Shown piece by piece: positions 5,035-64,000 of a DNA stretch of 64,000 nucleotides. A program made the position numbers and the translations under genes. Under the pieces are notes generated by a model that was not told the DNA's origin, did no database searches, and worked only from the letters and a program-made list of their open reading frames with translations. This stretch comes from Pseudolactococcus reticulitermitis (GTDB lineage Bacteria; Bacillota; Bacilli; Lactobacillales; Streptococcaceae): contig NZ_BEDT01000002.1 of assembly GCF_002260845.1 (NCBI RefSeq), positions 397,991 to 461,990 of the forward strand, in the 5' to 3' direction. Positions within the stretch are counted from its first letter, which is position 1, and each line of letters opens with the position of its first letter.

Positions 5035-5703
5035 TTATAAATATTGCGCCAAGTTTTTAAGAATGACTTGGCAGCCAGCAGGTGAAATATGTGCGCCGTC
5101 AAACGTATATTCTTTCTTAAGGTTGCCATTTTCATCAGCTAAACCTTCACTCACATCAATAAAGTGAACGCCCAATTTTTCAGCCATGTCACGATTTTTT
5201 TCACTTGCGAGATTAAATAAGTCATTATTTCGCGTTGCAAATAACACCGCCTCGTCTTCATCAGAGCCAAAATCTACATTATTAACAGGATAATACTTCA
5301 ATACGAAAATTTCAGTCTTCGGTAAAGTTGCCTGTATTTGTTGTATGATTTTTTCATAGTTTTCATGAAATATTTCTGGCTTGACTTGAAAGCCAATATC
5401 ATTTGTGCCAATATTGATAAAAATTTTGGAAGGTGCTAAATCAAAAATTTGTGTATGGATATGATCTAAGATAAATTGTGTCGTCGTCGCTCGTACAGCA
5501 CGGTTATAAATAGACTTTTCAAACTTGATTTCGCCACTTTCTTGCCAGTTTTCAATTGGAAAAAGTTCCATAATAGAACTGCCGATAAATAGCGTCTGCC
5601 CCTTTTTAACTGTTTTATTCTTTTCTTGATACTCAGCTAATAGGTTGTTTTGAAAAGCTATCAAATTGGGATTTAACGTGAGTTCTTGCGTTTCCTTACT
5701 CAT
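5035..5703 (-). CDS. SGNH/GDSL-family hydrolase
   Basis: A 222-residue esterase/lipase-like enzyme without signal peptide, so cytoplasmic. Block I is LFIGSSIME (nucleophile Ser in GSS), block III is INIGTNDIG (Asn), and block V is FDGAHISPAG (catalytic Asp and His). Block II, usually NRG-, reads NRAV here, replacing the oxyanion-hole Gly by Ala, a modest departure. The start has a good AGGAGGTG ribosome binding site and a plausible TAAAAT -10 further upstream. It may be co-transcribed with the epimerase, which begins 24 bases after it. Similar proteins are acetyl-esterases or isoprenoid/phospholipid acyl hydrolases; the substrate is unknown. Confidence 0.8.
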   Translation of the reverse strand: MSKETQELTLNPNLIAFQNNLLAEYQEKNKTVKKGQTLFIGSSIMELFPIENWQESGEIKFEKSIYNRAVRATTTQFILDHIHTQIFDLAPSKIFINIGTNDIGFQVKPEIFHENYEKIIQQIQATLPKTEIFVLKYYPVNNVDFGSDEDEAVLFATRNNDLFNLASEKNRDMAEKLGVHFIDVSEGLADENGNLKKEYTFDGAHISPAGCQVILKNLAQYL

Positions 5704-7256: not shown

Positions 7257-9097
7257 TGATACTTATCTCCAATCTTAGATTCAGATTCAACTTCTACGTA
7301 CTCATATCTATCTTCTAATATTTTTTCTATATCTAAAGCATTCCCTTTTTCATCAAGGTAAGTTTGGGTGTGGACAATGATGGGAATCAACTCCTCATAT
7401 AGCTTAGACGGTGTTATTCCATCGTTTTCTTCAACCAGTGATTGAATGATATTTATAATGTACTCTTTAGATTTTTCAGGCGCTACAACAGGTTCTAAAT
7501 TCGGTTTCACACTATTATCTTTGAAAAGTGTATACACAAAATCACCTGTCAGCGTGTTCATTTTATTGATTCCTTGCGTCCCTGAACTCACAGCTTGTTC
7601 TTGTAAGTTTATGTCGCACAAAATAAATCCAGCACGCTTAACGGCATCCATAACCCCTTTCCAAACGTTTAAATCGCGATTGTGAAAGGTGAATGAAACA
7701 TATCGCTTGTCTTTAAGCACCCTATGCATTTCTTTAAAAGTTGCTAACATTCTCTCACCATAGTCTACGTGATCTTTCTTTCTGTAACTATCGATGATAA
7801 TCTCGCTATCATAATCAACTGTAGTATCTAACCAGCTGTTCCAAAATTGACTCAGCGCTAAGTATGCGATACTTTCCCCGTATGGAGGATCAGTAAAAAT
7901 ATAGTCGATAGATTCGTTTTCCAAAAATTGCATTTTATTAGAGTTAGTGTTATATAAATCAATATAGTTATTATCAACATTTTCAAGTTCTAGCTTACCC
8001 TTGGCAATTGCATTAACTCTAAGTTTGAAACAATGAAAGATGTTTCGTTCAGTGTGGATTTTCGGAGTCCAAAATTTACTAATTACCCAGCCTGATTTAT
8101 ATGTTGCTTTTTCTAAATCGGCAGGCAGCATATTCGAAACATTCGCCAGCATACTGGTAAAGGTAAACATTAGCAAGCTTCGCATTTGCTCATTTTCAAC
8201 CAAAAATATATTATCTCGCAAATTCGACAAAATGATTAAAGCTCGATCCGTGAAAAGCTCATCTATCGATTCTTTGCCAGAGCGTTTAACATACTGTAAT
8301 ACCTTGTCTTTTGGATACTTAATCGAGCCATCTTTATCTAGCTTTCTCTTAAGTGCTCTTATTTGGTTTATCTTTTTTGAATCTTTGGCATCTACGTCTT
8401 TTACGAATACTCCGTCAAGTTTGCACTTCCCTTTAACCCTAACAAATTCACCGTTTTCCCAAATACCTATTTCAACATGCGCTGCATTTCCGCAAGACGG
8501 GCAAGTTGTTTCGTAAAGATGATTACACTCATCCGCTAGAGCATCTAGAATAGAATTTGCTAAACGTTTATATTCTTCTAAATCGACATCGGACACTGTG
8601 TTTTCAGCAATAAATTTCGACATAGGATTAATATCGACACCAACCCCAACACGTTTCGCCTTACAAGCCTCGATTGGAACAATTCCCGAACCCATGAAAG
8701 GATCTAAAACAACATCTCCTGGAGATGTATAATTTTCAATATAATCAGCCACAACATTATGAGGTTTGCGCCCCCAATATTTATGCATCAAATAGTGAGC
8801 CGGATGAGATTTAGCACTTATATTTTTCATTTTAGCGTTCTTATTACCACCACTACTAGGAATATTATTGTCATTCAAGCCCTCTGAAACATAAAAATTG
8901 TTTCTAAAATCAATGACATCCGATTTGTAGAATTTTCGATAATTGGTTTCCTGTACCTTTACGCAACGTAATTTCCCGGCATCGGCTAATCTTCTAACTG
9001 TATTACTTGACACTTCCAAAATAGTAGCAGCTTTATTAACTCCTATGAGCTCATTACTAGATATATTTTTATTATCCAAGTCTTCCAACCCTCCCAA
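7238..9097 (-). CDS. DNA adenine/N4-cytosine methyltransferase with N-terminal DNA-binding domain
   Basis: A 619-residue amino-methyltransferase. The N-terminus (residues about 18-65) is a MerR/excisionase-like helix-turn-helix (INKAATILEVSSNTVRRLADAGKL type). HKYWGRKPHN lies near 105-114, SAM motif I LDPFMGSG at 131-138, a Zn-ribbon-like CPSCG at 199-203 and the catalytic DPPY at 403-406. Motif I before a long middle region before DPPY suggests the alpha order, and the HKYWGRKPHN/DPFMGSG combination resembles the Zn-ribbon adenine-specific methylases (COG1743 type). The first in-frame start is a TTG at 9097; a GGAGGG at 9094-9089 fits a TTG at 9079 better. It partners the C5 enzyme that follows. 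Confidence 0.88.
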   Translation of the reverse strand: MGGLEDLDNKNISSNELIGVNKAATILEVSSNTVRRLADAGKLRCVKVQETNYRKFYKSDVIDFRNNFYVSEGLNDNNIPSSGGNKNAKMKNISAKSHPAHYLMHKYWGRKPHNVVADYIENYTSPGDVVLDPFMGSGIVPIEACKAKRVGVGVDINPMSKFIAENTVSDVDLEEYKRLANSILDALADECNHLYETTCPSCGNAAHVEIGIWENGEFVRVKGKCKLDGVFVKDVDAKDSKKINQIRALKRKLDKDGSIKYPKDKVLQYVKRSGKESIDELFTDRALIILSNLRDNIFLVENEQMRSLLMFTFTSMLANVSNMLPADLEKATYKSGWVISKFWTPKIHTERNIFHCFKLRVNAIAKGKLELENVDNNYIDLYNTNSNKMQFLENESIDYIFTDPPYGESIAYLALSQFWNSWLDTTVDYDSEIIIDSYRKKDHVDYGERMLATFKEMHRVLKDKRYVSFTFHNRDLNVWKGVMDAVKRAGFILCDINLQEQAVSSGTQGINKMNTLTGDFVYTLFKDNSVKPNLEPVVAPEKSKEYIINIIQSLVEENDGITPSKLYEELIPIIVHTQTYLDEKGNALDIEKILEDRYEYVEVESESKIGDKYQWQQKE

Positions 9098-10814: not shown

Positions 10815-12452
10815 GTGACTTTTATGGAATATTACAAAGCTATAAAATTTGAACGCTTCATTTTGTTTTCAAGTATAACTAGCGACAAAGAACTAGACCA
10901 GCTAGAAAATAGCTGTGAGACTACTATCAGCTGCGACGAATCAAACTCAGATATCCGGGTAGATTCCAGCGGGATAGTTCATCTTTACGAATGGACATCT
11001 TACAACATAGTTGGTTTATCCAATGCTCCCCTCAACAAAGACGATTATTTTTATAGCGGACTTATCGGCCGCCATAATTCTGGAACTATTTTATTTAAAA
11101 ATTTTATCGGGAAAGCAAAATTTAGAGATGTTGTCTTTGTCGTTGAATCAAAAAAAATGGATACCCATGATGTTGAAAAACTGATAAGCGAGATTGACGA
11201 GCGGGTACAGGCTACTATCTCTCAATTCTTTTCAAGTAGAGGGATATCCCAAGGAGTTTTCAAGAAAAACAAAGATAAATTTCAAGATTTTTATGTATAC
11301 CAAAAATTGTATCATTCCTTAAAGCAGGGGAATATTACGAGATTCGCAAAATTCATAGCGACCAATCCAAACAGCCAATTTATAAAGAATGTTACCCAAA
11401 AACATATTACTCAGATCAAAAACGTTTCACCCGAAAGTATTATGGATGTTTTCTCAGGAAACACTCCCTTGTCCAAATCTAATAGCAAACCATCATTGTC
11501 GCAAAAATTCTCAGGCAATGTCCCTTTAGTTATGAATGAACATATAAACGTTGTCACAACAGACATAAATGAAAATCAGTTTGTGAAATTTTTTCTAAAA
11601 CTTTCTCTTAAAATATTGAGCCATTTTATACTTGAACTTTCGGAACGGGATTCAGAAAACACCTCTAAAAATGCTCTCTTGATAGGCGAATTGCACGATT
11701 ATAGAGATGCGATTCAGCAGCTCTTAAAACTGGATTTTTATAAGAATGTCTCTAATCTCAACTTATTAAACCATTCTAGCACCGCCCTTACAAAGCAATA
11801 TGGTTATAAGCAACTTTACAACGAATTTATAAACTTAAAACAAACCCCCACTAGTTGTTTCGATACATCTTCTTTAATAGACTTGTTCGAGAATAAATCT
11901 ATCGATAAACTATATGAATACGTAAGTTTATTTAGACTTGTTGACATTTTAGAAAAAATCTATTCGTCACCATCTAATTCGACTATTACTGTCGCCTCTA
12001 CTCAGAAGATATACACCTTATCTTTAGGCGAAGATAACGGTAGCGTTGAGTTTACCTTTAAAGGCAATGACACCTTATATTCAACAAAACTTTTATTTCA
12101 ACATTCATTCACTCTTAAAAATAATGACTCCTACTCCGTTGAATTCAAGCCTGATTTCACTTTACAGGTTTTTATAGGAGGAGAAACTAAATACTATCAC
12201 TTTGATTCGAAATTCAGAGTTTCTTATGATGAGTCTAGCAAAAATGATGACATCGTAAAAATGCATGCCTATAGAGATGGCATTACCGACACAGTTGGAT
12301 CCTTTGTTTTGTTCCCCGGACAAGTTGACAATCTATTTATTGTCGGTGATTCGTATCCATATCAGGGTGTTGGATCTTTTCCTTTGAACCCCGATGATAG
12401 ATTTGACACCATATTAGAAGACGCGCTTTTTAAAATCGTTTCACGCATTTGA
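10815..12452 (+). CDS. DUF2357/McrC-like PD-(D/E)XK restriction nuclease
   Basis: A 545-residue partner of the McrB-like NTPase. The N-terminal and central parts are helical and match the DUF2357 style. The C-terminus holds a PD-(D/E)XK core: PDFTL with Asp447, then strand KYYHFDSKFR with Asp464 and Lys466, then KMHAYRD. The first GTG touches the upstream stop; ATG 10824 with TAGGTG before it is the likelier start (542 residues). By analogy to LlaJI R2 or McrC it delivers the cleavage. Together with the two methylases on the other strand it forms a complete-looking multi-subunit restriction-modification system. Confidence 0.8.
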   Translation: MTFMEYYKAIKFERFILFSSITSDKELDQLENSCETTISCDESNSDIRVDSSGIVHLYEWTSYNIVGLSNAPLNKDDYFYSGLIGRHNSGTILFKNFIGKAKFRDVVFVVESKKMDTHDVEKLISEIDERVQATISQFFSSRGISQGVFKKNKDKFQDFYVYQKLYHSLKQGNITRFAKFIATNPNSQFIKNVTQKHITQIKNVSPESIMDVFSGNTPLSKSNSKPSLSQKFSGNVPLVMNEHINVVTTDINENQFVKFFLKLSLKILSHFILELSERDSENTSKNALLIGELHDYRDAIQQLLKLDFYKNVSNLNLLNHSSTALTKQYGYKQLYNEFINLKQTPTSCFDTSSLIDLFENKSIDKLYEYVSLFRLVDILEKIYSSPSNSTITVASTQKIYTLSLGEDNGSVEFTFKGNDTLYSTKLLFQHSFTLKNNDSYSVEFKPDFTLQVFIGGETKYYHFDSKFRVSYDESSKNDDIVKMHAYRDGITDTVGSFVLFPGQVDNLFIVGDSYPYQGVGSFPLNPDDRFDTILEDALFKIVSRI

Positions 12453-56282: not shown

Positions 56283-58205
56283 TTACGGCATATAAGCCAT
56301 CAAGTCTGTCAAATCCCCAATGTCAGCTCGTATTTTATCGCCAATGGTTGTGTCTTTAATCAAGCGACGTTTGGGCTTTTCTTCTAAGAAATATTTTAAG
56401 GACTCGTTGCCCTTGCCTTTTGCCAAAATTTCTTCAATAGATGTAAAGGGCGCGTGGGTCACGATTTTAAAACCGTAGGAGTCATTTAAGAGGGAATAGC
56501 CTGCGATGCCTGTCGTTTTCTGATAGGCTTTACTCATCCCGCCATCTATCACCATGAGTTTCCCGTTGGCTTTGATAGGACTTTCGCCACTGGCGACCTT
56601 GACCGGTGTATGCCCATTAATCACAACGGATTGTGGGTCATTCAAGCCAAACTCTGCCAAGATCATCTCGATGATTTCTGGTTTTTCTCGATAAGCAAAG
56701 TAAGGATTTTCTCCCTCCTTATGTGTGCTTTTATCTGCGATAAAATAACGTTCAAATGTTGTCATCGCCGAACGCCCAAATAGAGGGGAACATTTGCCTG
56801 CCCAAGCATACCACATCAGGTCAGTCGAGTAATCATCATAAATTTCAGTATGGCGAATGCCACGCCTAATGTGCGCCTCAAATTGATCAAGTAAGGCACG
56901 GCCAGAATAGAGATGACCGCCAATCCTCATCGCTAAAAAAGTGCCATCCTTTTTCAGAGGAATGCAACCATGGTACAACAAATGACGATTGTAAACGAGA
57001 TAGGATGAGCCTTTTTCGACTAGAAACTGCATGTGGCGTTGGAATTTTTCAGATTTCTGTAGAGACGACAAAATCGCTGCCATGACGTAGGCTTCGCTTT
57101 CGGTCAACTCATTTGGATGAGCCTGCGAGACGGTTTGAAAACACGTGTTTTCAAGTGGATATTCCTTATCATTTAAGGTAATGGTTTTGTGCGCAAAGTC
57201 AATCTGCTCTAATAAATTACGGTCTGCCATTTCAAACTCAGGTCGGCGCGCGATGATTTGACCTTCTAGCTTGAACTGAATCATGGTCAAAGCCTGATGG
57301 ACTTTGGTCAAACGCGTTTGATTTTCGACACCTAGCAAGTCATCATCAGGACGTGCTGTCGGCTTAAAAGCTGGATTCAGTTCGTAATGTTCTTCAGCAA
57401 ATAAAAATAATGGTCGCAGGTTCAGGGAATAAGCTGTCTCTAATTCATAGAGGTAATTATATTTAACCGCAATTCGAAGTAGCGTCGCAAGGCTCGCCAT
57501 GTTCCCAGCATAAGCCCCCATCCACAGCACATCATGATTGCCCCACTGGAAATCCACGTTATGAAATTGAATCAGGCGATCCATCACCTTATCCGCACCC
57601 GCACCCCGATCAAAGACATCCCCAACCACATGCAAATGGTCCACCGTCAACTGCTGAAGCGTCATACACAAACTGCGAATAAACTTGTCCGCCTGATTCA
57701 GCTCAATCAACCGCTTAATAATCTGCTGATAATAGTCCGCTTTTTCAGACTGATTCGCCTCAATACTCAGCATTAATTCTTCCGTAAAATAGCGGAAATC
57801 TGCATTAACCGCCTTACGAACCTTAGAACGAGAGTATTTGGTGCCCAGATAACGGAGCAACTTAATCAGACGATGAATCGTCCGACTTGACCAGTCGTTG
57901 GCAGCCTCCAAATCTTTTGGCTTACGTTGTAACATATCCGTCGGATATGCAATCAGCATAGCCAGACACTCCATTTCTTCCGGCTCCTCATCACTAAATA
58001 GCTCATCAATTTTTTCCTTGATATTTCCAGCACCTGTTCGAATAATATGGTTAAATGCCTTATATTCTGCATGAATATCACTAATATAAAGCTCTGTTCC
58101 TTTTGGCAAGTTAAGAATGGCTTCCAAGTTAATCAGCTCACTTGCGACTTTGTCCTTGGTTTCATACTTTTCAGCTAATAATGACAGATATTTGTTTTCT
58201 TGCAT
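56283..58205 (-). CDS. fbp: Fructose-1,6-bisphosphatase, class III
   Basis: Gluconeogenic phosphatase of the Firmicute class III, 640 residues. Metallophosphoesterase motifs ELYISDIHAEYKAF, VVGDVFDRGAGADKVMD, WGNHDVLWMGA and NGHTPVKVASGESP are present. Single gene. A TGCTATAAT extended -10 precedes it at about 58240. Confidence 0.95.
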   Translation of the reverse strand: MQENKYLSLLAEKYETKDKVASELINLEAILNLPKGTELYISDIHAEYKAFNHIIRTGAGNIKEKIDELFSDEEPEEMECLAMLIAYPTDMLQRKPKDLEAANDWSSRTIHRLIKLLRYLGTKYSRSKVRKAVNADFRYFTEELMLSIEANQSEKADYYQQIIKRLIELNQADKFIRSLCMTLQQLTVDHLHVVGDVFDRGAGADKVMDRLIQFHNVDFQWGNHDVLWMGAYAGNMASLATLLRIAVKYNYLYELETAYSLNLRPLFLFAEEHYELNPAFKPTARPDDDLLGVENQTRLTKVHQALTMIQFKLEGQIIARRPEFEMADRNLLEQIDFAHKTITLNDKEYPLENTCFQTVSQAHPNELTESEAYVMAAILSSLQKSEKFQRHMQFLVEKGSSYLVYNRHLLYHGCIPLKKDGTFLAMRIGGHLYSGRALLDQFEAHIRRGIRHTEIYDDYSTDLMWYAWAGKCSPLFGRSAMTTFERYFIADKSTHKEGENPYFAYREKPEIIEMILAEFGLNDPQSVVINGHTPVKVASGESPIKANGKLMVIDGGMSKAYQKTTGIAGYSLLNDSYGFKIVTHAPFTSIEEILAKGKGNESLKYFLEEKPKRRLIKDTTIGDKIRADIGDLTDLMAYMP

Positions 58206-58290
58206 GCTTGCCTGCTTTCTGGATGTGATTTGATAGGTCTATTATAGCATGGAATGATGAGATTTACTGACTTGTTTTTTGAACTAAAAT

Positions 58291-58323
58291 AACCTCCAAA
58301 TAATATTCGATTATTTGGAGGTT
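58291..58323 (+). promoter_or_regulatory. Hairpin covering the ribosome binding site of the STAND-like gene
   Basis: Perfect 14-base arms (58291-58304 and 58310-58323) around a five-base loop ATTCG; the second arm holds the GGAGG of the + strand gene. RNA started upstream would hide the ribosome binding site. The repeat could equally be one complete recombinase core site. The right-hand copy of the region lacks the distal arm. Confidence 0.75.
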
Positions 58324-58336
58324 TTATGGAAAAGTT
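58299..58336 (+). repeat. Left 38-bp inverted repeat (possible inversion site)
   Basis: Identical, base for base, to the reverse complement of 61592-61629. It includes the core AATAAT-ATTCG-ATTATT, the ribosome binding site TTGGAGG, the ATG and the codons for Met-Glu-Lys of the + strand gene. The match stops five bases into what follows, so two unrelated genes begin with the same module. Confidence 0.95.
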
Positions 58337-60599
58337 TGAGTATTGGGATCAAGATATAACAGACTTCATAAAAAATAATTGTAGAAAGTACTTAAGTAAT
58401 ATTTCCAAACATAATAACAAAATTTTATTAATATATGGAGAGAATAATAGTGGTAAGAATACACTGGTAAATCATATTTGTAAAAAATATTTAAAGAATG
58501 ATGTGCAACTAATTAGATATGAAAATCACGAAATTGTAGTCGAAAAATATCCGTTTGAGCTTCAGGAAAACATTCATATTCATGAACTATTGCCTGATTT
58601 TTCATTATCTACAGAAGGAATTCAGCCAAGTGCTGGGATTACTTTACCTATAACTAAATTATATAAGTACTTCTCAAATAAAAAGTTGAATAATGTTTTG
58701 TATTTTAAGGATGTCGAACAAGAAAATAACATTGATATACATACTATTAAAACAATTTTGAAAGATATCCCCGGTAAATCTATTGTTATTATAACGACAT
58801 CTGATAAACAGATTTTTGATGATTTTATAGAAGAGGATATTATTGCTAGATTTTGTATACCCAAAATTAAAAAGGATAGTAAAGATTTTCAAAATTATGA
58901 AACATCTATATTGAGAGAATTAAAAAAATTATCAAATGAAGACTATAAAAAAATCATTGATTTATCTCATGGAAATTATGGGAATATCAAATTATTGCTT
59001 AATCACGATATAATATCTTTTATTGAACAAATCTACAGTTCAAAGCAAGAAACGGTAGATAACGAAAATGAAAAAAATAAACAAAAATTAATTCTATCTA
59101 TTTTTTTATTGAGTAATTTTTTAAGTGAGGAAGCTCTAGAAGATATTTTTTCAGATACTGATTATGACTATATTTCAGAATTTGAAAAGTTAATTGAAAG
59201 TAGTATTATAGATAAACAGTACAAATTTAATGATTTAATATGGAACTCACGAGAAGGGTTTATAAAAAATTTCTATAACAAAAGAACTAGGCGTGATATT
59301 GCATTGAAACTTGAGTATTATTTAAAATTAAATTATCCAGAAAACTACTCTCTTCGAGCAAAAATATTAAAAGGTATTGACAATAGAAAATACAAAAGTT
59401 TAGTTCGTATTTCAAATCTTAGAAATCCTAAAAACCTTACTGAATCAGAAGACAAATTTATAGAATTTATTACCGATATAGAAAAAAATGAACATGATTA
59501 TATAATGTTTAATAAATCAGAATTGACTTTATTGGAATTGGCGGAGTTTCAGATTCATTTTTTTAATTGTATTACAAAAAGTAGCTCAAGAAATTATGAA
59601 TTAATTCATTTTATAATTATGGAGTTATTTAACACCTATGAAAAAATGATAAACCTAAAAGAAATAGAATTAGCTATTAGAGTAGGAATCGTTGTATCTA
59701 TCGGAGCCATTAATTACAACGTTTCTAGCAAGTTAGATATGGCAAAAAAAGTTTATCTAGAAATAACTGATTTGATAGATAAAAAAATTGTCCAAAAGAA
59801 TAATTATTATATATCATACTCTATCTTTTGTAAAATTATATGTGCTGGTTTTATACCTTATCAAGAAGCTTATTATACTTTATATGGTCTTATTAATGAT
59901 TTGAAAACAGAACGATTTCGTTCTTCAAATATTAATCTAGAGAGAATATTTCCTATTGCACTTGGTAATTTTCTAGGGGTTAGCATGTACTTGGAAAATG
60001 AGAACATGCTGAATGCTAAGGGGGTATACGATAATAGCTTTGATATACTTGATAATTTCAAATTTAAGAAATTTAAACTTAAAAATAACGCACTTCTTAT
60101 CACTCTATTTTTGAGCAATAATATCCGTGATGATATATTTAAGGTGTTAAGTGAATTTAATAAGATAAATAATACAGAAATAAATCAAGCATTCAAAATT
60201 AATTATGCTGGATTACTCTTTTATAAAGAAGAATCTCCAATAAAATCTTTGCATATACTAGAAAAGATACTAAATCAAGATGAAGGAAAAGATGATTTTT
60301 ATCAATTCTATTGTAATTACAATATCTGTATCATAAAAATAAAGTTAGGTAAAATTACTGAGGCAATTGAAATCTCAAAAGATTTAAAGACCCCTACTAT
60401 ATTTTCAGATAATACAGTAAAAAAAATAATTGAAAAAAGAATAGAATTTTTAAAAAATTACTTACTAGACAATTCGAATAAACATAATTGGTCAGAATTT
60501 CAAATACAATCCAATGACTATTTTAATAAATTTGAGGGAATTTTTTCTCAGGCTTGGTCATTTACAGACATTCAGTATTGGAATGATGTGCTCCAATAA
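58326..60599 (+). CDS. STAND-like P-loop NTPase with helical repeat C-terminus
   Basis: A 757-residue protein I cannot assign to a named family. The N-terminus is an NTPase domain: P-loop GENNSGKN at residues 38-45 (Asn where Ser/Thr normally follows the Lys), Walker B-like VLYFKD at 124-129 and sensor-like SIVIITTSD at 152-160. A winged-helix-like part follows (about 250-330), then some 400 residues of helical, TPR-like character. No membrane segment. The layout resembles STAND signalling ATPases used in regulation and phage defence. Base composition is far more A/T-rich than the neighbours. Its start is in the 38-bp repeat and its end overlaps the facing gene by 38 bases. Confidence 0.7.
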   Translation: MEKFEYWDQDITDFIKNNCRKYLSNISKHNNKILLIYGENNSGKNTLVNHICKKYLKNDVQLIRYENHEIVVEKYPFELQENIHIHELLPDFSLSTEGIQPSAGITLPITKLYKYFSNKKLNNVLYFKDVEQENNIDIHTIKTILKDIPGKSIVIITTSDKQIFDDFIEEDIIARFCIPKIKKDSKDFQNYETSILRELKKLSNEDYKKIIDLSHGNYGNIKLLLNHDIISFIEQIYSSKQETVDNENEKNKQKLILSIFLLSNFLSEEALEDIFSDTDYDYISEFEKLIESSIIDKQYKFNDLIWNSREGFIKNFYNKRTRRDIALKLEYYLKLNYPENYSLRAKILKGIDNRKYKSLVRISNLRNPKNLTESEDKFIEFITDIEKNEHDYIMFNKSELTLLELAEFQIHFFNCITKSSSRNYELIHFIIMELFNTYEKMINLKEIELAIRVGIVVSIGAINYNVSSKLDMAKKVYLEITDLIDKKIVQKNNYYISYSIFCKIICAGFIPYQEAYYTLYGLINDLKTERFRSSNINLERIFPIALGNFLGVSMYLENENMLNAKGVYDNSFDILDNFKFKKFKLKNNALLITLFLSNNIRDDIFKVLSEFNKINNTEINQAFKINYAGLLFYKEESPIKSLHILEKILNQDEGKDDFYQFYCNYNICIIKIKLGKITEAIEISKDLKTPTIFSDNTVKKIIEKRIEFLKNYLLDNSNKHNWSEFQIQSNDYFNKFEGIFSQAWSFTDIQYWNDVLQ

Positions 60600-61602
60600 T
60601 TAGACTTAATAAATCGGGGTGTGAAAAATCTTGTTGTTCCATCAAAAAATTGAATGATGAGTGCTCAGTAAGATAAGGAGTAGTTGCAATATCGAAACAA
60701 TAAAAATTGTTTTTGAAGTCAACCCTAAAGTCAACCCTGCCGTAATCTTTAAGCTCAGTAAGTTTTGCAATACGAACTGCCTCTGCAATAATAGCGTCAC
60801 ACAAAACAGGATTATCAATTTCATCCTCAAAATCATAAAATTCATATTTTGTATCATACATTTCTTCTTCGAGAATTCCAGACTTAAAGAATATCTCACC
60901 ATTTTTCTGTATACCACAAATTCCTAGTGATAAAAACACTCCATTATATTGTATTAAAGGAACTTCTATTTCATAGCCTTGAATATATTGTTGAATAATA
61001 TCTTGAGGCTTTAACTGTTTTTTTTCAATCAGTTCTAAGACTGTACTACTAGACAGATTAGTTAATGAACTACTCATTCCTCTACTTGCGGATCCTTTTT
61101 CTGGTTTGATGAGAAAGGTAATTGAGGCATCCGCATACTTTCTAGCATCAAATTCTGAGGGAAATTTTGTGATAAGAGAACTATGGATTATTTTTTGAAA
61201 ATGAAACTTATGGCGACAAAGATTCATAGTATAGACACTAGAACCTATATATTCCAAATTCATGAAGTCTGCCATACTTGTAACGAGTGATTTTTTATTG
61301 TTATCTCCCCCTTGTCGAGACAAATTCCATATTAATAGGTTAGAGGGTAAATCGTTATTAAGAGTATTTTGGATATATTCTAATTCATTTGGGAACGTAA
61401 ATAGTCTAGCATTTTTTCTAAACAATGCATCAAATATTTCGCCAATTTCTTTGTTAGAGAAAAAGTCACTATCTTCTTGAGAAAAATCTATCTTATTTGT
61501 AAAACCTACGGCGTTATAAATTATTGCCAGCTCCTTATCTTTCAAAGTTTCTTCTCCAATACAGCAGATGTTGTTTAATGTTTTTCTAGATAACTTTTCC
61601 AT
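60562..61602 (-). CDS. ATP-grasp ligase-like protein, D-Ala-D-Ala ligase type
   Basis: A 346-residue ATP-grasp protein. ATP-binding strands and loop FLIKPEKGSASRG at residues 163-175, YIQGYEIEVP at 206-215, GRVDFRVD at 288-295, and DIATTPYLTEHSSF at 304-317 in the place of the E-x-N-T-x-P-G-(L/M)-T metal site. Asp replaces the usual Glu and Ala the usual Asn, so metal binding is altered. The N-terminal part (LLIWNLSRQGGDNNKKS) echoes ligases that bind peptides or amino acids. It may join two small molecules, or modify the facing gene's product. It starts with the same MEK codons and leader as the STAND-like gene. A/T-rich. Confidence 0.75.
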   Translation of the reverse strand: MEKLSRKTLNNICCIGEETLKDKELAIIYNAVGFTNKIDFSQEDSDFFSNKEIGEIFDALFRKNARLFTFPNELEYIQNTLNNDLPSNLLIWNLSRQGGDNNKKSLVTSMADFMNLEYIGSSVYTMNLCRHKFHFQKIIHSSLITKFPSEFDARKYADASITFLIKPEKGSASRGMSSSLTNLSSSTVLELIEKKQLKPQDIIQQYIQGYEIEVPLIQYNGVFLSLGICGIQKNGEIFFKSGILEEEMYDTKYEFYDFEDEIDNPVLCDAIIAEAVRIAKLTELKDYGRVDFRVDFKNNFYCFDIATTPYLTEHSSFNFLMEQQDFSHPDLLSLIIGAHHSNTECL

Positions 61603-61629
61603 AAAACCTCCAAATAATCGAATATTATT
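61592..61629 (-). repeat. Right 38-bp inverted repeat (possible inversion site)
   Basis: Exact inverted copy of 58299-58336, carrying the ribosome binding site and start of the ATP-grasp gene. Outside it the sequence differs from the left flank, so no ribosome-binding-site-hiding arm is present here. Confidence 0.95.
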
Positions 61630-61640
61630 GTATGATTATT

Positions 61641-61649
61641 ATTATAACA
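61641..61649 (-). promoter_or_regulatory. Extended -10 promoter entering the cassette from the right
   Basis: Leftward TG-T-TATAAT (61649-61641) places transcription start at about 61634, five bases outside the right repeat. Whatever gene is at this end of the cassette would be transcribed. No good -35 is seen, as is common with an extended -10. Confidence 0.6.
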
Positions 61650-61701: not shown

Positions 61702-62592
61702 ATGGAAAACATTATTCATTCTTTTATTCACACTAAAAAACTTGAAAATCTTTCTCTGTCCACCTTGAAAGCATATCGTGCTGATTTATCAAGATTCGCT
61801 TTATATTGTAAAAAGTATGATTTTCAAATGGAATCTGGTATCACACAGTATCTCAAACATTTGGAAAAAACGACTAGCTACCGCCCAAATACCAAAAGCA
61901 GAAAGTTAGTGACTATCAAATTGTTTTACAATTACTTGATCGATAACAAACTCAGCCACCATTTTCCCCTACCACAGGTTAAAATTAGAAAAGAAAAACG
62001 CCTCCCCAAGACGCTGACCAGCTCTGAAGTGAGAAAACTTTTCTCAACTGTCTCCATCATTCCAAAGTCAAAGCCCAAGATACGGGATCAAATCAGAGAT
62101 TTTGCCATTTTAAACATCTTGATCAGCCTTGGACTTAGAATTTGTGAAATTCGAAATTTAAACGTAGATGATTACAATGTCAAAGACGGACAGCTCATCA
62201 TTTTTGGAAAAAATCGAAAGGAACGGATATTATTTTTAACTAATATGCAAGATAAGGCGATGATGAAAAAATATCTTGCCACCAGGCTGCACTACTCCCC
62301 TCTTCCTGGTGAAACAGCTTTATTTCTAAATAAATATGGCCAACGTCTCTCGATTTATGGGATAGAAAATATTTATTACAAATATCGTGATGCTTCAAAT
62401 ATTAATCCTAAATCAACACCGCATCACCTTAGACACAGCTTTGCTACAGAACTTTTGAACAATGGTGCCAATCTCAGAGATATTCAGGAGCTCTTAGGAC
62501 ATGCCAGCATCACAACCACTGAAATCTATGTCGAAGTTTCATCAACTCGGAAAAGGAAGGTGTTGTCCAAATTTGGGATCAAAAAATATTGA
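61702..62592 (+). CDS. Tyrosine recombinase (XerC/D-like)
   Basis: A 296-residue site-specific recombinase with an intact catalytic set: Arg146 in SLGLRICEIR, Lys in the FGKNRKERI hairpin (170-173), His241 and Arg244 in TPHHLRHSFATELL, His267 in LLGHASITTT and nucleophile Tyr276 in EIYVEVS. The N-terminal core-binding domain is normal (SLSTLKAYRADLSRFALYCK). It is not the chromosomal dimer-resolution XerC by context; it lies 72 bases from the right inverted repeat and reads away from it, the common position for an invertase of a phase-variable cassette. GGATT is a weak ribosome binding site. Confidence 0.9.
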   Translation: MENIIHSFIHTKKLENLSLSTLKAYRADLSRFALYCKKYDFQMESGITQYLKHLEKTTSYRPNTKSRKLVTIKLFYNYLIDNKLSHHFPLPQVKIRKEKRLPKTLTSSEVRKLFSTVSIIPKSKPKIRDQIRDFAILNILISLGLRICEIRNLNVDDYNVKDGQLIIFGKNRKERILFLTNMQDKAMMKKYLATRLHYSPLPGETALFLNKYGQRLSIYGIENIYYKYRDASNINPKSTPHHLRHSFATELLNNGANLRDIQELLGHASITTTEIYVEVSSTRKRKVLSKFGIKKY

Positions 62593-62713: not shown

Positions 62714-64000
62714 TTAGATGTCACTGCTGATTTTTTTACGATAGATATACATCGCGATTATGATACAAATCGCTCCTAATGCAACAAGCTCGAGATGACT
62801 TATTTCACCTGTTTTAGGCATACCATCGTCAGTATTTGGTATGTCACGTGGTGTCGGTGGCACAACAATCGGCACTTCCGGATATTGTGGCGGAATACCG
62901 GGTACTTTGACAACAGCAATATTCTTCACTTCTCCTTTTGCCTTATTGGTAACCTTGACTTGGAAAATGAGTTTCACTAGCTCACCACCCTTTAGATTAT
63001 CAATTTTTGCTGTGATTGTTTGACCATTAACCTTGACATCACCTTTGGCGCCTTCTAATTTCACACTTGCTGTATCTAACTCCAGAACAGCGGGAACCTC
63101 ATCGGTAATCATCACATCTTTTAATACACTGTCTTTATTACCTGTATTTTTAGCAGTTATTTCATAGGTTAAAACATCTCCTACTTGTACTGTTTTTCCT
63201 CCAATATCAGTGCCGTCTTTGTTAAAGACTTGTTTAGAAGATTCAAGCTTACCTACTGGATTTTCTACAACAGGTGGTGGTGGTGTGTTACCTGATACAA
63301 GCATCGCATTACTTACTTTTCCTTTTTCGTTTGCCTTATCTGTGACTTGGGCTTGGAATGTAAGTTTGGCACTTTCTCCCCCTTTTAAGGTGACTTTAGC
63401 AGAAATCTTTTGATTAACGACTTCAAAAGTACCATTTGTGCCACCTATGAGCGAAATTGAGTTTTTATCCAATAAAAGTGTATCTTCGACATCATCACCA
63501 AATTCGTAATCGACAAGCTCGGATTTTGCATCACCGATATTTTTTACAGTCAATTCATAAGTTAAGAAATCTCCAACCTTGACACTTTCTCCATCAATTT
63601 TCTTTCCCGTGCTATCAAAGACATGCTTTTCTGCCTCTGCTTTTGGTACTGGATTTTCTACGACAGGTGGTGGTGGTGTGTTACCTGATACAAGCATCGC
63701 ATTACTTACTTTTCCTTTTTCGTTTGCCTTATCTGTGACTTGGGCTTGGAATGTAAGTTTGGCACTTTCTCCCCCTTTTAAGGTGACTTTAGCAGAAATC
63801 TTTTGATTAACGACTTCAAAAGTACCATTTGTGCCACCTATGAGCGAAATTGAGTTTTTATCCAATAAAAGTGTATCTTCGACATCATCACCAAATTCGT
63901 AATCGACAAGCTCGGATTTTGCATCACCGATATTTTTTACAGTCAATTCATAAGTTAAGACATCTCCAACCTTGACACTTTCTCCATCAATTTTCTTTCC
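62714..64000 (-). CDS. Wall-anchored surface protein with DUF11-like repeats (continues past window)
   Basis: The leftward frame is open to the window end, so the N-terminus is missing. Visible are at least three repeats of about 130 residues with the pattern VGDFLTYELTVKNIGDAKSE, as in DUF11/isopeptide-type repeats of Gram-positive adhesins, joined by Pro-rich linkers (NTPPPPVVENPV). The C-terminus has a sortase signal MPKTGE (an LPXTG variant with Met), a membrane helix (LVALGAICIIIAMYIY) and a basic tail (RKKISSD). It is likely a cell-surface stalk or adhesin. A Met at 63946 is internal to a repeat and is not the real start. Confidence 0.88.
   Translation of the reverse strand, partial: GKKIDGESVKVGDVLTYELTVKNIGDAKSELVDYEFGDDVEDTLLLDKNSISLIGGTNGTFEVVNQKISAKVTLKGGESAKLTFQAQVTDKANEKGKVSNAMLVSGNTPPPPVVENPVPKAEAEKHVFDSTGKKIDGESVKVGDFLTYELTVKNIGDAKSELVDYEFGDDVEDTLLLDKNSISLIGGTNGTFEVVNQKISAKVTLKGGESAKLTFQAQVTDKANEKGKVSNAMLVSGNTPPPPVVENPVGKLESSKQVFNKDGTDIGGKTVQVGDVLTYEITAKNTGNKDSVLKDVMITDEVPAVLELDTASVKLEGAKGDVKVNGQTITAKIDNLKGGELVKLIFQVKVTNKAKGEVKNIAVVKVPGIPPQYPEVPIVVPPTPRDIPNTDDGMPKTGEISHLELVALGAICIIIAMYIYRKKISSDI
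63276..64000 (-). repeat. Near-identical 393-bp coding repeats in the surface protein gene
   Basis: The unit from the Pro-rich linker through one 131-residue domain recurs with a period of 393 bases. The right copy is cut by the window end. The two are identical over nearly all shared bases; one visible change turns Phe into Val in VGD(F/V)LTYE. A third, older repeat at about 62900-63275 is diverged. Confidence 0.88.

What the first reader, a model, noticed from the sequence alone, without database searches (positions are those of the whole stretch)
58299..61629. Probable recombinase-flipped either/or cassette: STAND-like NTPase versus ATP-grasp ligase
Two unrelated convergent genes start inside the same perfect 38-bp inverted repeat, which carries the ribosome binding site, ATG and first codons of each. 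A complete tyrosine recombinase gene lies 72 bases outside the right repeat. An extended -10 promoter just outside the right repeat enters the segment, and no equally good promoter is seen on the left. Inversion by recombination between the repeats would replace one gene by the other behind the same promoter and leader with no change to either protein. Seen: repeats, genes, recombinase, promoter-like site. Known: tyrosine recombinases invert such segments in phase variation (for example hsdS and surface loci). Inferred: that this one does. I know of no described system that pairs these two proteins.
Basis: partly seen in the sequence, partly recalled or inferred. Interest (0 to 1): 0.93.

Follow-up and report, generated by a model that had tools for sequence, protein, structure and literature searches.

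The report
Flippable two-gene immune-type cassette
In a Lactococcus relative, two unrelated genes lie tail to tail between perfect mirror-image DNA repeats beside a recombinase gene, and related bacteria carry such segments in both orientations, so the cell likely flips the segment to express one gene or the other; in some relatives the same device holds genes that resemble the two halves of the Thoeris antiphage system, which would then not be made from one promoter at the same time.

Summary
Confirmed and extended. The perfect 38-bp inverted repeat, the two convergent genes that start inside it and the complete tyrosine recombinase gene are there.

The locus belongs to an apparently undescribed family: 20 two-sided cassettes in 19 genomes and one plasmid, each with one hairpin-type and one open site, and a 7-nt spacer identical within each locus (20 of 20) but of 8 types overall. 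Payloads fall into five classes, three of them recurrent; one is ThsA plus a TIR protein, as in Thoeris.

Inversion is seen directly between related genomes: twice, flanks align on one strand and the cassette on the other, breaking at the repeats. Two assemblies hold the cassette as a separate contig ending at the repeats with 97-bp overlaps on both sides, as mixed orientations would give.

Inferred, untested: inversion in this strain, either/or expression, and function. Ten literature searches found no description. New variant of a known kind; high interest.

The parts
58291..58323 (.). Left ('hairpin side') perfect palindrome, 14-bp arms and 5-nt loop; as RNA it would sequester the SD of the left gene, and read outward on the minus strand it is the only terminator-like site found in 58100-58420
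58299..58336 (+). Left inverted repeat: recombination site AATAA-TATTCGA-TTATT (58299-58315), GGAGG 58317-58321, ATG 58326 and first codons
58326..60599 (+). 757-aa STAND-like protein (P-loop-like N-terminus, helical C-terminal half); on the predicted OFF side in this assembly
60562..61602 (-). 346-aa ATP-grasp protein of D-Ala-D-Ala-ligase fold; on the predicted ON side in this assembly; 3' end overlaps the other gene by 38 bp
61592..61629 (-). Right inverted repeat, identical to the left one over 38 bp, spacer TATTCGA, GGAGG and ATG
61641..61649 (-). Extended -10 element TGTTATAAT reading into the cassette, 11 nt outside the right site; TA[TC]AAT within 28 nt outside the open site in 14 of 20 family loci, 0 of 20 on the hairpin side
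61702..62592 (+). 296-aa tyrosine recombinase, R146-K170-H241-R244-H267-Y276; XerC/D-like but below the XerC and XerD equivalog cut-offs

Best explanation
Two unrelated genes lie tail to tail between two copies of one recombination site, and related genomes carry such segments in both orientations, so the neighbouring tyrosine recombinase likely inverts the segment and thereby would place one gene or the other behind a single fixed predicted promoter. Shown: the anatomy; identical spacers inside each locus; inversion at the repeats between related genomes; different payload pairs on conserved flanks. Inferred: strand exchange happens in the 7-bp spacer between AATAA and TTATT arms; the outer arms stay with the chromosome, so after each inversion the promoter-like element stays on one side and the SD-hiding, terminator-like hairpin on the other; the gene next to the promoter is translated from the SD in the repeat, while the other is not transcribed in sense from it and is also locked by the hairpin. 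Inferred and less certain: because the same kinds of partners keep recurring (ThsA with TIR; ATP-grasp with a large STAND-like protein; SHMT-like enzyme with a membrane STAND), the payload is one two-part immune-type system whose small-molecule enzyme and sensor/effector are kept in separate expression states.
For: Inversion between genomes: L123 vs L125, flanks 95.1% and 93.6% on the minus strand, cassette 99.1% over 3575 bp on the plus strand, ends at the repeats; L122 vs L124 likewise, flanks 85.9%/85.0%, cassette 96.2% over 3508 bp, ends within 14 bp of the repeats. Assemblies: in G620 and G617 the cassette is its own contig bounded by the repeats, joined to each flank contig by exactly 97 bp (4 of 4 ends), although the repeats are 25 and 28 bp; in G629 the break falls at the repeat edges with a 26-bp overlap. 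Sites: spacer identical in 20 of 20 loci, 8 types overall; TA[TC]AAT outside 14 of 20 open sites and 0 of 20 hairpin sites. SD unpaired probability 0.00 on 19 of 19 hairpin sides folded, 0.20-0.69 on the open sides (the plasmid locus was not folded, G629's hairpin leader is cut short by the contig end). Orientation: ATP-grasp/large partner 5 versus 5; SHMT-like/membrane STAND 2 versus 2. Pairing: no mixing of classes in 20 cassettes; in classes A and C the enzyme is more conserved than its partner, e.g. 48% vs 26%, 79% vs 56%. ThsA profile at 1e-97 to 1e-112 in four loci. Payload class does not follow the recombinase tree: 9 changes, shuffled mean 8.3.
Against: No direct evidence of both orientations in the window's own strain: its contig is continuous. 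The Paenibacillus-type loci (L121-L125, L127) lack TA[TC]AAT outside the open site (L121 has TATAAA), so a promoter there is assumed. Hairpin and open side differ little in outer-arm pairing in L122 and G620 (7 vs 6 of 10), and G620's open leader folds almost as well as its hairpin leader (-15.5 vs -15.7). A weak site TTTACT-N16-TAAAAT lies outside the left repeat; if used, its RNA would start near the site and escape the hairpin. In published S. aureus Thoeris the ThsB genes without ThsA gave no protection (PMC12578639, passages), which sits badly with strict either/or expression. All three two-sided ThsA cassettes have ThsA on the open side; only the one-sided G009 locus shows ThsA on the hairpin side. 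The TIR proteins match ThsB weakly (3e-8 to 8e-11), and in L014 and L121 the model PDC-S66 scores better; in this class TIR is less, not more, conserved than ThsA (28% vs 34%). The large partners of G857/G912 and G1018 have no GxxxxGK motif and little or no blastp similarity to the others, so 'STAND' rests there on size and place. G635 has a broken recombinase yet keeps the cassette. Defence function of the window's pair is not tested; PADLOC gives only a weak hit for the STAND (0.003).
Confidence: 0.86

Rival explanations
1. The repeats are static: a conserved leader (SD and start) duplicated in front of two genes, and the neighbouring recombinase is unrelated.
For: The repeat is exactly the leader of both genes; the window itself shows one orientation.
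Against: Clean inversions between related genomes; the two copies share a 7-nt spacer that varies between loci (20 of 20); the recombinase adjoins a two-sided cassette in 16 of the 22 genomes found by recombinase similarity, and three of the other six have it at a contig end.
Confidence: 0.03
2. Inversion occurs by ordinary homologous recombination between the repeats, not by the neighbouring recombinase.
For: Breakpoints lie in 25-38-bp identical repeats; G635 keeps a cassette with a broken recombinase.
Against: Repeats are short for RecA-type exchange (general knowledge); site anatomy (arms, 7-nt spacer) is that of a tyrosine-recombinase core site (general knowledge); in two of three loci with the cassette gone the recombinase is also damaged: apparent internal deletion in G472, H241Q in E. 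ureasiticus/G446.
Confidence: 0.07
3. The main role of the recombinase is capture and loss of gene-pair cassettes (integron-like); inversion is a by-product.
For: On flanks 95%/93% identical, L123 and L124 carry different cassettes with no match; G635 and G532 share a flank at 93% over 502 bp but carry different pairs; three loci carry one site or remnant and no payload (G472, G567, E. ureasiticus); payload class is scattered on the recombinase tree.
Against: The two sites are in inverted arrangement, which gives inversion and not excision; cassette exchange can also come from homologous recombination in the flanks; the open/hairpin asymmetry is kept in the 20 loci and makes most sense for an expression switch.
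Confidence: 0.2
4. Payloads are two independent alternative defences, and the switch is plain bet-hedging between them.
For: Convergent genes, one predicted promoter, both states common in classes A and C.
Against: Partner classes do not mix in 20 cassettes across genera; ThsA is an effector gated by a TIR-made signal in the published system (PMC12578639, passages), so ThsA without TIR should be idle.
Confidence: 0.3

Closest known systems
Ureaplasma mba/UU376 and UU172/UU171 phase-variable elements (PMC3047005, passages read)
   Same: Two oppositely oriented genes alternate in expression by inversion at short inverted repeats.
   Different: Surface proteins in a mollicute, with the 5' membrane-anchor part fused to either gene; no hairpin lock in the passages I read; no defence genes.
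Streptococcus pneumoniae hsdS inversion by PsrA (PMC4948785, PMC7096588: start of abstracts in search listings)
   Same: A tyrosine recombinase inverts DNA between inverted repeats; touches a restriction-modification type system.
   Different: Shuffles hsdS genes of one family; here two unrelated whole proteins swap and only leader and first codons are shared.
Thoeris (PMC12578639 passages; PADLOC ThsA/ThsB models)
   Same: L014, L059 and L121 cassettes hold a SIR2-STALD ThsA and a TIR protein.
   Different: The published S. aureus Thoeris genes form one operon; here they are convergent in an invertible cassette. The window's own pair is not Thoeris.
Phage Mu G segment / plasmid R64 shufflon / Moraxella pilin inversion (recalled, not looked up)
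   Same: Inversion selects which of two or more genes is joined to a fixed start.
   Different: Alternatives there are variants of one protein type; Mu uses a serine recombinase.
PinQ inversion in E. coli (PMC12529663, passages of abstract and reference list)
   Same: Inversion affects phage infection; authors note recombinases lie beside antiphage genes with unknown role.
   Different: Serine recombinase, cryptic-prophage segment, adsorption phenotype.

Membership tests
Tyrosine-recombinase invertible element | Complete recombinase with R-K-H-R-H-Y | tested here: met
   HxxR also checked (H to Q in E. ureasiticus; G635 fragment lacks it)
Tyrosine-recombinase invertible element | Inverted core sites with identical spacer | tested here: met
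   20 of 20 two-sided loci
Tyrosine-recombinase invertible element | Both orientations occur | tested here: met
   in relatives: two genome pairs; assembly breaks; not shown in the window's strain
Tyrosine-recombinase invertible element | Inversion depends on the recombinase | not testable with these tools
   needs deletion or in vitro assay
Housekeeping XerC/XerD | Reaches the equivalog cut-off | tested here: not met
   XerD 209.3 bits vs 329.6; XerC 208.3 vs 335.15
Thoeris (window pair) | SIR2-STALD ThsA and TIR ThsB | tested here: not met
Thoeris (L014, L059, L121 cassettes) | ThsA and a TIR protein both present | tested here: met
   ThsA strong, TIR domain by Pfam for L014 and L059, ThsB match weak in all three
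Thoeris (L014, L059, L121 cassettes) | Genes co-directional in one operon | tested here: not met
   convergent in each
STAND NTPase (window 58326-60599) | P-loop NTPase profile and intact Walker A | tested here: inconclusive
   NB-ARC 23.0 bits vs cut-off 23.5; P-loop GENNSGKN lacks S/T after K; model only 63 pLDDT
D-Ala-D-Ala ligase (window 60562-61602) | Fold and C-terminal domain | tested here: met
   PF07478 46.6 bits vs 24; the 50 Foldseek hits listed are Ddl-type ligases
D-Ala-D-Ala ligase (window 60562-61602) | Subfamily score of true Ddl | tested here: not met
   60.7 bits vs 245.65; DIAT in place of the ligase EANT motif (motif recalled; alignment)

The most novel reading that the evidence does not exclude
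A family of split immune systems held apart by DNA inversion: each cassette encodes a small-molecule enzyme (TIR, ATP-grasp, SHMT-like, methyltransferase, polyprenyl synthase) and its cognate sensor/effector, and the switch lets a cell make only one half at a time. Immunity then arises either because a flip makes the old and the new half meet in one cell, so that the recombination event itself arms the system, or because the two cell types divide labour across the population. ATP-grasp, SHMT-like and prenyl-synthase partners would be new makers of immune signals.
Probability: 0.35. Interest if true: 0.96.

Novelty: new variant of a known kind. Interest (0 to 1): 0.9.

Why it matters
DNA inversion is known for surface proteins and restriction specificity. 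Here one recombinase-plus-site chassis, found in Lactococcus relatives, Enterococcus-type genomes, two further families of the order and Paenibacillus-type genomes, carries exchangeable pairs of unrelated genes, one pair being of Thoeris type. If expression is either/or, it would challenge the assumption that two-part immune systems are always co-expressed. It also points to new candidates: the STAND/ATP-grasp, membrane STAND/SHMT-like, methyltransferase/membrane and polyprenyl synthase/membrane pairs can be tested as two-part defence systems, with the Thoeris-type cassette as internal guide.

Tried and rejected
Viral origin: in viral contigs the recombinase profile gave 173 relatives, the best by E-value 31% identical over residues 16-287 (80 kept), and none of the 81 loci has a palindromic site of this type; ATP-grasp gave one locus at 25% and none in the phage collection. 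Plasmids: recombinase 2 records, ATP-grasp 1, STAND none, the 66-bp repeat region none. Thoeris for the window's own pair: rejected. True D-Ala-D-Ala ligase: rejected by score. Homes of this ATP-grasp type outside cassettes: 22 of 329 genomes of the phylum had hits, the window's at 7e-139 and the next at 6e-32; neighbours of those hits were not examined. Pattern hits with 3 mismatches (G039, G199, G218) are at the level of the reversed-pattern control (4 genomes) and were not counted. Structure of the STAND: too low in confidence for a family call. Literature: ten searches, all of the open PMC library, gave in their listings no description of an invertible Thoeris, STAND or ATP-grasp cassette; most subscription journals are not in it.

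Rows dropped or missed. Recombinase: one search also hit five genomes at 35-39% identity (G096, G103, G105, G130, G140); I left these out of the 22; two of them (G096, G105) were fetched and showed no site. Of the 22, 16 have a two-sided cassette. The other six: G034 recombinase, no site; G446 (E. ureasiticus) H241Q recombinase and a remnant site; G567 intact recombinase and one empty site; G017, G865 and G904 recombinase at a contig end (G904 with one site there). G009 and G039 have a site but no recombinase hit. G635, G1018 and G1019 (two-sided) and G472 (empty) came from the site pattern. Hairpin and open sides were assigned by me from outer-arm pairing and cassettes were chosen as two-sided, so 'inverted in all 20' is partly by selection.
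Full report
What is there. The window is G000:C2:397991-461990 of a 2.17-Mb genome. At 58299-58336 and 61592-61629 lies a perfect 38-bp inverted repeat (chance about 1e-13 to 4e-11 per 64 kb). Each copy carries GGAGG, the ATG and the first codons of one of two convergent genes that overlap by 38 bp at their ends: a 757-aa STAND-like protein and a 346-aa ATP-grasp protein. A complete tyrosine recombinase follows 72 bases outside the right repeat. The cassette has 26.7% G+C against 40.3% for the window.

The left copy is part of a perfect palindrome (58291-58323) with a 14-bp stem covering the ribosome-binding site; the RNA folds at -18.0 kcal/mol, z -4.5, 0 of 200 shuffles as stable, whereas the right leader shows no structure beyond chance (163 of 200 shuffles as stable). 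Read outward it is the one terminator-like site there. The right copy instead has an extended -10 element TGTTATAAT just outside. A mechanical promoter scan does not score it, for lack of a -35, and finds two weak sites reading in from the left; this is a real caveat.

A family of cassettes. The L. piscium locus (L014) has the same core repeat (36 bp perfect) but other genes: a TIR protein and a SIR2-STALD protein, the latter ThsA of Thoeris at E 4e-112 in PADLOC and similar to solved ThsA structures. Recombinase-profile searches (12 of 395 genomes of the order; 8 of 398 of the class; both counts include the window's own genome) and site-pattern searches (12 of 22 genomes of one genus, a genus I take as Enterococcus because one contig length equals that of E. 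ureasiticus DSM 23328) gave 19 genomes with two-sided cassettes, the window's included; a plasmid of Paenibacillus sp. IHBB 10380 (L127) makes 20. Payload classes: A, ATP-grasp with a large STAND-like or STAND-sized partner, 10; B, ThsA/TIR, 3, plus the one-sided G009 locus, where only ThsA and the tail of a convergent gene are seen; C, SHMT-like/membrane STAND, 4; D, methyltransferase/membrane protein, 2 (no blastp similarity between the two loci); E, polyprenyl synthase/membrane protein, 1. No class is mixed with another. All eight class A ATP-grasp proteins compared are alike (21-56%), but the large partners of G857/G912 and G1018 show little or no similarity to the rest and no GxxxxGK motif. 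In classes A and C the enzyme is better conserved than its partner, for instance ATP-grasp 48% against STAND 26%, SHMT-like 79% against membrane STAND 56%; in class B it is the reverse, TIR 28% against ThsA 34%.

Site anatomy. The site is AATAA, 7-nt spacer, TTATT, then TGGAGG. In 20 of 20 cassettes the spacer is the same in both copies, yet eight spacers occur overall; 48 of 190 between-locus pairs agree, 45 of them through the common spacer CTATAAA of ten loci. That is what strand exchange by a tyrosine recombinase would demand. In every cassette I assigned one side as hairpin side by outer-arm complementarity (7-10 of 10 pairs against 3-7 on the other side; the margin is only 7 to 6 in L122 and G620); independently, TA[TC]AAT occurs within 28 nt outside the other, open site in 14 of 20 and outside the hairpin site in 0 of 20. 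The six without it are the Paenibacillus-type loci (L121, which has TATAAA, L122-L125 and L127). Folding the leaders gives unpaired probability 0.00 for the ribosome-binding site on 19 of 19 hairpin sides folded and 0.20-0.69 on the open sides (L127 was not folded, the G629 hairpin leader is cut short, and G620's open leader is nearly as stable as its hairpin leader). The recombinase gene lies on the open side in some lineages (window, L014, L036, L055, L056, L116, and the broken one of L117) and on the hairpin side in others (L059, L062, L064, L118, L121-L125, L127, G617, G620, G629).

Inversion. L123 (G783) and L125 (G841) align over both flanks on one strand (95.1%, 93.6%) and over the whole cassette on the other (99.1%, 3575 bp), with ends in the repeats; L122 (G857) and L124 (G912) do the same (85.9%, 85.0%; 96.2%, 3508 bp), with ends within 14 bp of the repeats. 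Across the family, class A has the large partner on the open side in 5 and the ATP-grasp gene in 5 of 10; class C is split 2 to 2; class D 1 to 1; class B 3 to 0 for ThsA; related pairs and assembled contig ends are counted here, so these are not independent draws. In G620 and G617 the cassette is a separate contig that begins and ends at the outer edges of the repeats and overlaps each flank contig by exactly 97 bp, 4 of 4 ends. Repeats of 25 and 28 bp should not break an assembly with words of about 97 bases (word size inferred from the overlaps), so I infer that reads from both orientations were present. In G629 one flank contig ends and the next begins at the repeat, with a 26-bp overlap; in G904 a contig ends 14 bases past a site.

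Exchange and loss. L123 and L124 share flanks at 95% and 93% but carry cassettes with no nucleotide match. G635 and G532 share 93% over 502 bp of one flank but carry classes C and D. Payload class is scattered on the recombinase tree, 9 changes among 19 labelled rows of classes A-D against a shuffled mean of 8.3 (the tree has long branches). Three loci have one site or a remnant and no payload: G472 (apparent internal deletion in the recombinase), G567 (recombinase intact) and E. ureasiticus G446 (catalytic His to Gln); the flanks of G472 and G567 match filled loci on both sides of the site, those of E. ureasiticus match the empty G472 locus. A close relative, G008, has the fbp-side flank at 88% and no site.

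Proteins. The ATP-grasp model (pLDDT 79) matches D-Ala-D-Ala ligases but scores far below true ligases and has DIAT where I recall EANT in the ligases. The STAND protein has a weak NB-ARC match just under the cut-off, a P-loop lacking the usual S/T, and a helical C-terminal half; its model is too poor for more. The ThsA proteins keep TTNxD; the His of the HGD motif is Asn in 3 of 4, so their NADase activity needs testing.

How it likely works. The recombinase inverts the segment; outer arms and promoter stay, so one gene at a time is read from the fixed promoter and the other is not transcribed in sense from it and is locked by the hairpin. The fixed pairing suggests two halves of one system. 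In published S. aureus Thoeris the ThsB genes without ThsA gave no protection (PMC12578639, passages read), so a device that separates the halves is a paradox: either a flip lets the two halves meet, or different cells hold different halves, or leaky expression suffices. I cannot decide among these.

Prior work. Ten searches of the open library gave no description of such a cassette in their listings. Papers seen: PMC3047005, PMC12529663 and PMC12578639 in passages, PMC12324116 abstract and outline; the rest in listings only.

Noticed in passing
window 63254-63553 and 63647-63946: Two perfect 300-bp direct repeats inside a surface-protein-like gene with a C-terminal MPKTGE sorting-type signal (62714 to beyond the window end).
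   Followed up: no
L056 (G469) 5262-5447 and 7588-7773: A 186-bp perfect inverted repeat whose sequence looks HsdS-like (my reading, no search) next to the cassette: perhaps a second invertible locus beside the same recombinase.
   Followed up: no
L040, L059, L121: ThsA proteins of three loci have Asn in place of the His of the HGD motif; L. piscium L014 keeps His.
   Followed up: partly
L121 7389-7441: On the TIR side the repeat's SD precedes a 17-codon leader ORF whose stop overlaps the TIR start, suggesting translational coupling.
   Followed up: partly
L117 4130-4636: Recombinase with an internal deletion beside an otherwise complete SHMT-like/membrane-STAND cassette: a probably locked switch.
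   Followed up: partly
L064 7032-7919: SHMT-like gene ends after 296 codons against 406-410 in the three relatives, on the predicted OFF side.
   Followed up: no
L058 (G617) 11312-11594: Regularly spaced 15-base repeats (67-base period), possibly a CRISPR array near the cassette.
   Followed up: no
L041 (G039) 2747-2769: A lone hairpin-type site with 3 mismatches and no payload or recombinase; possibly a scar, but hits of this quality occur by chance.
   Followed up: partly
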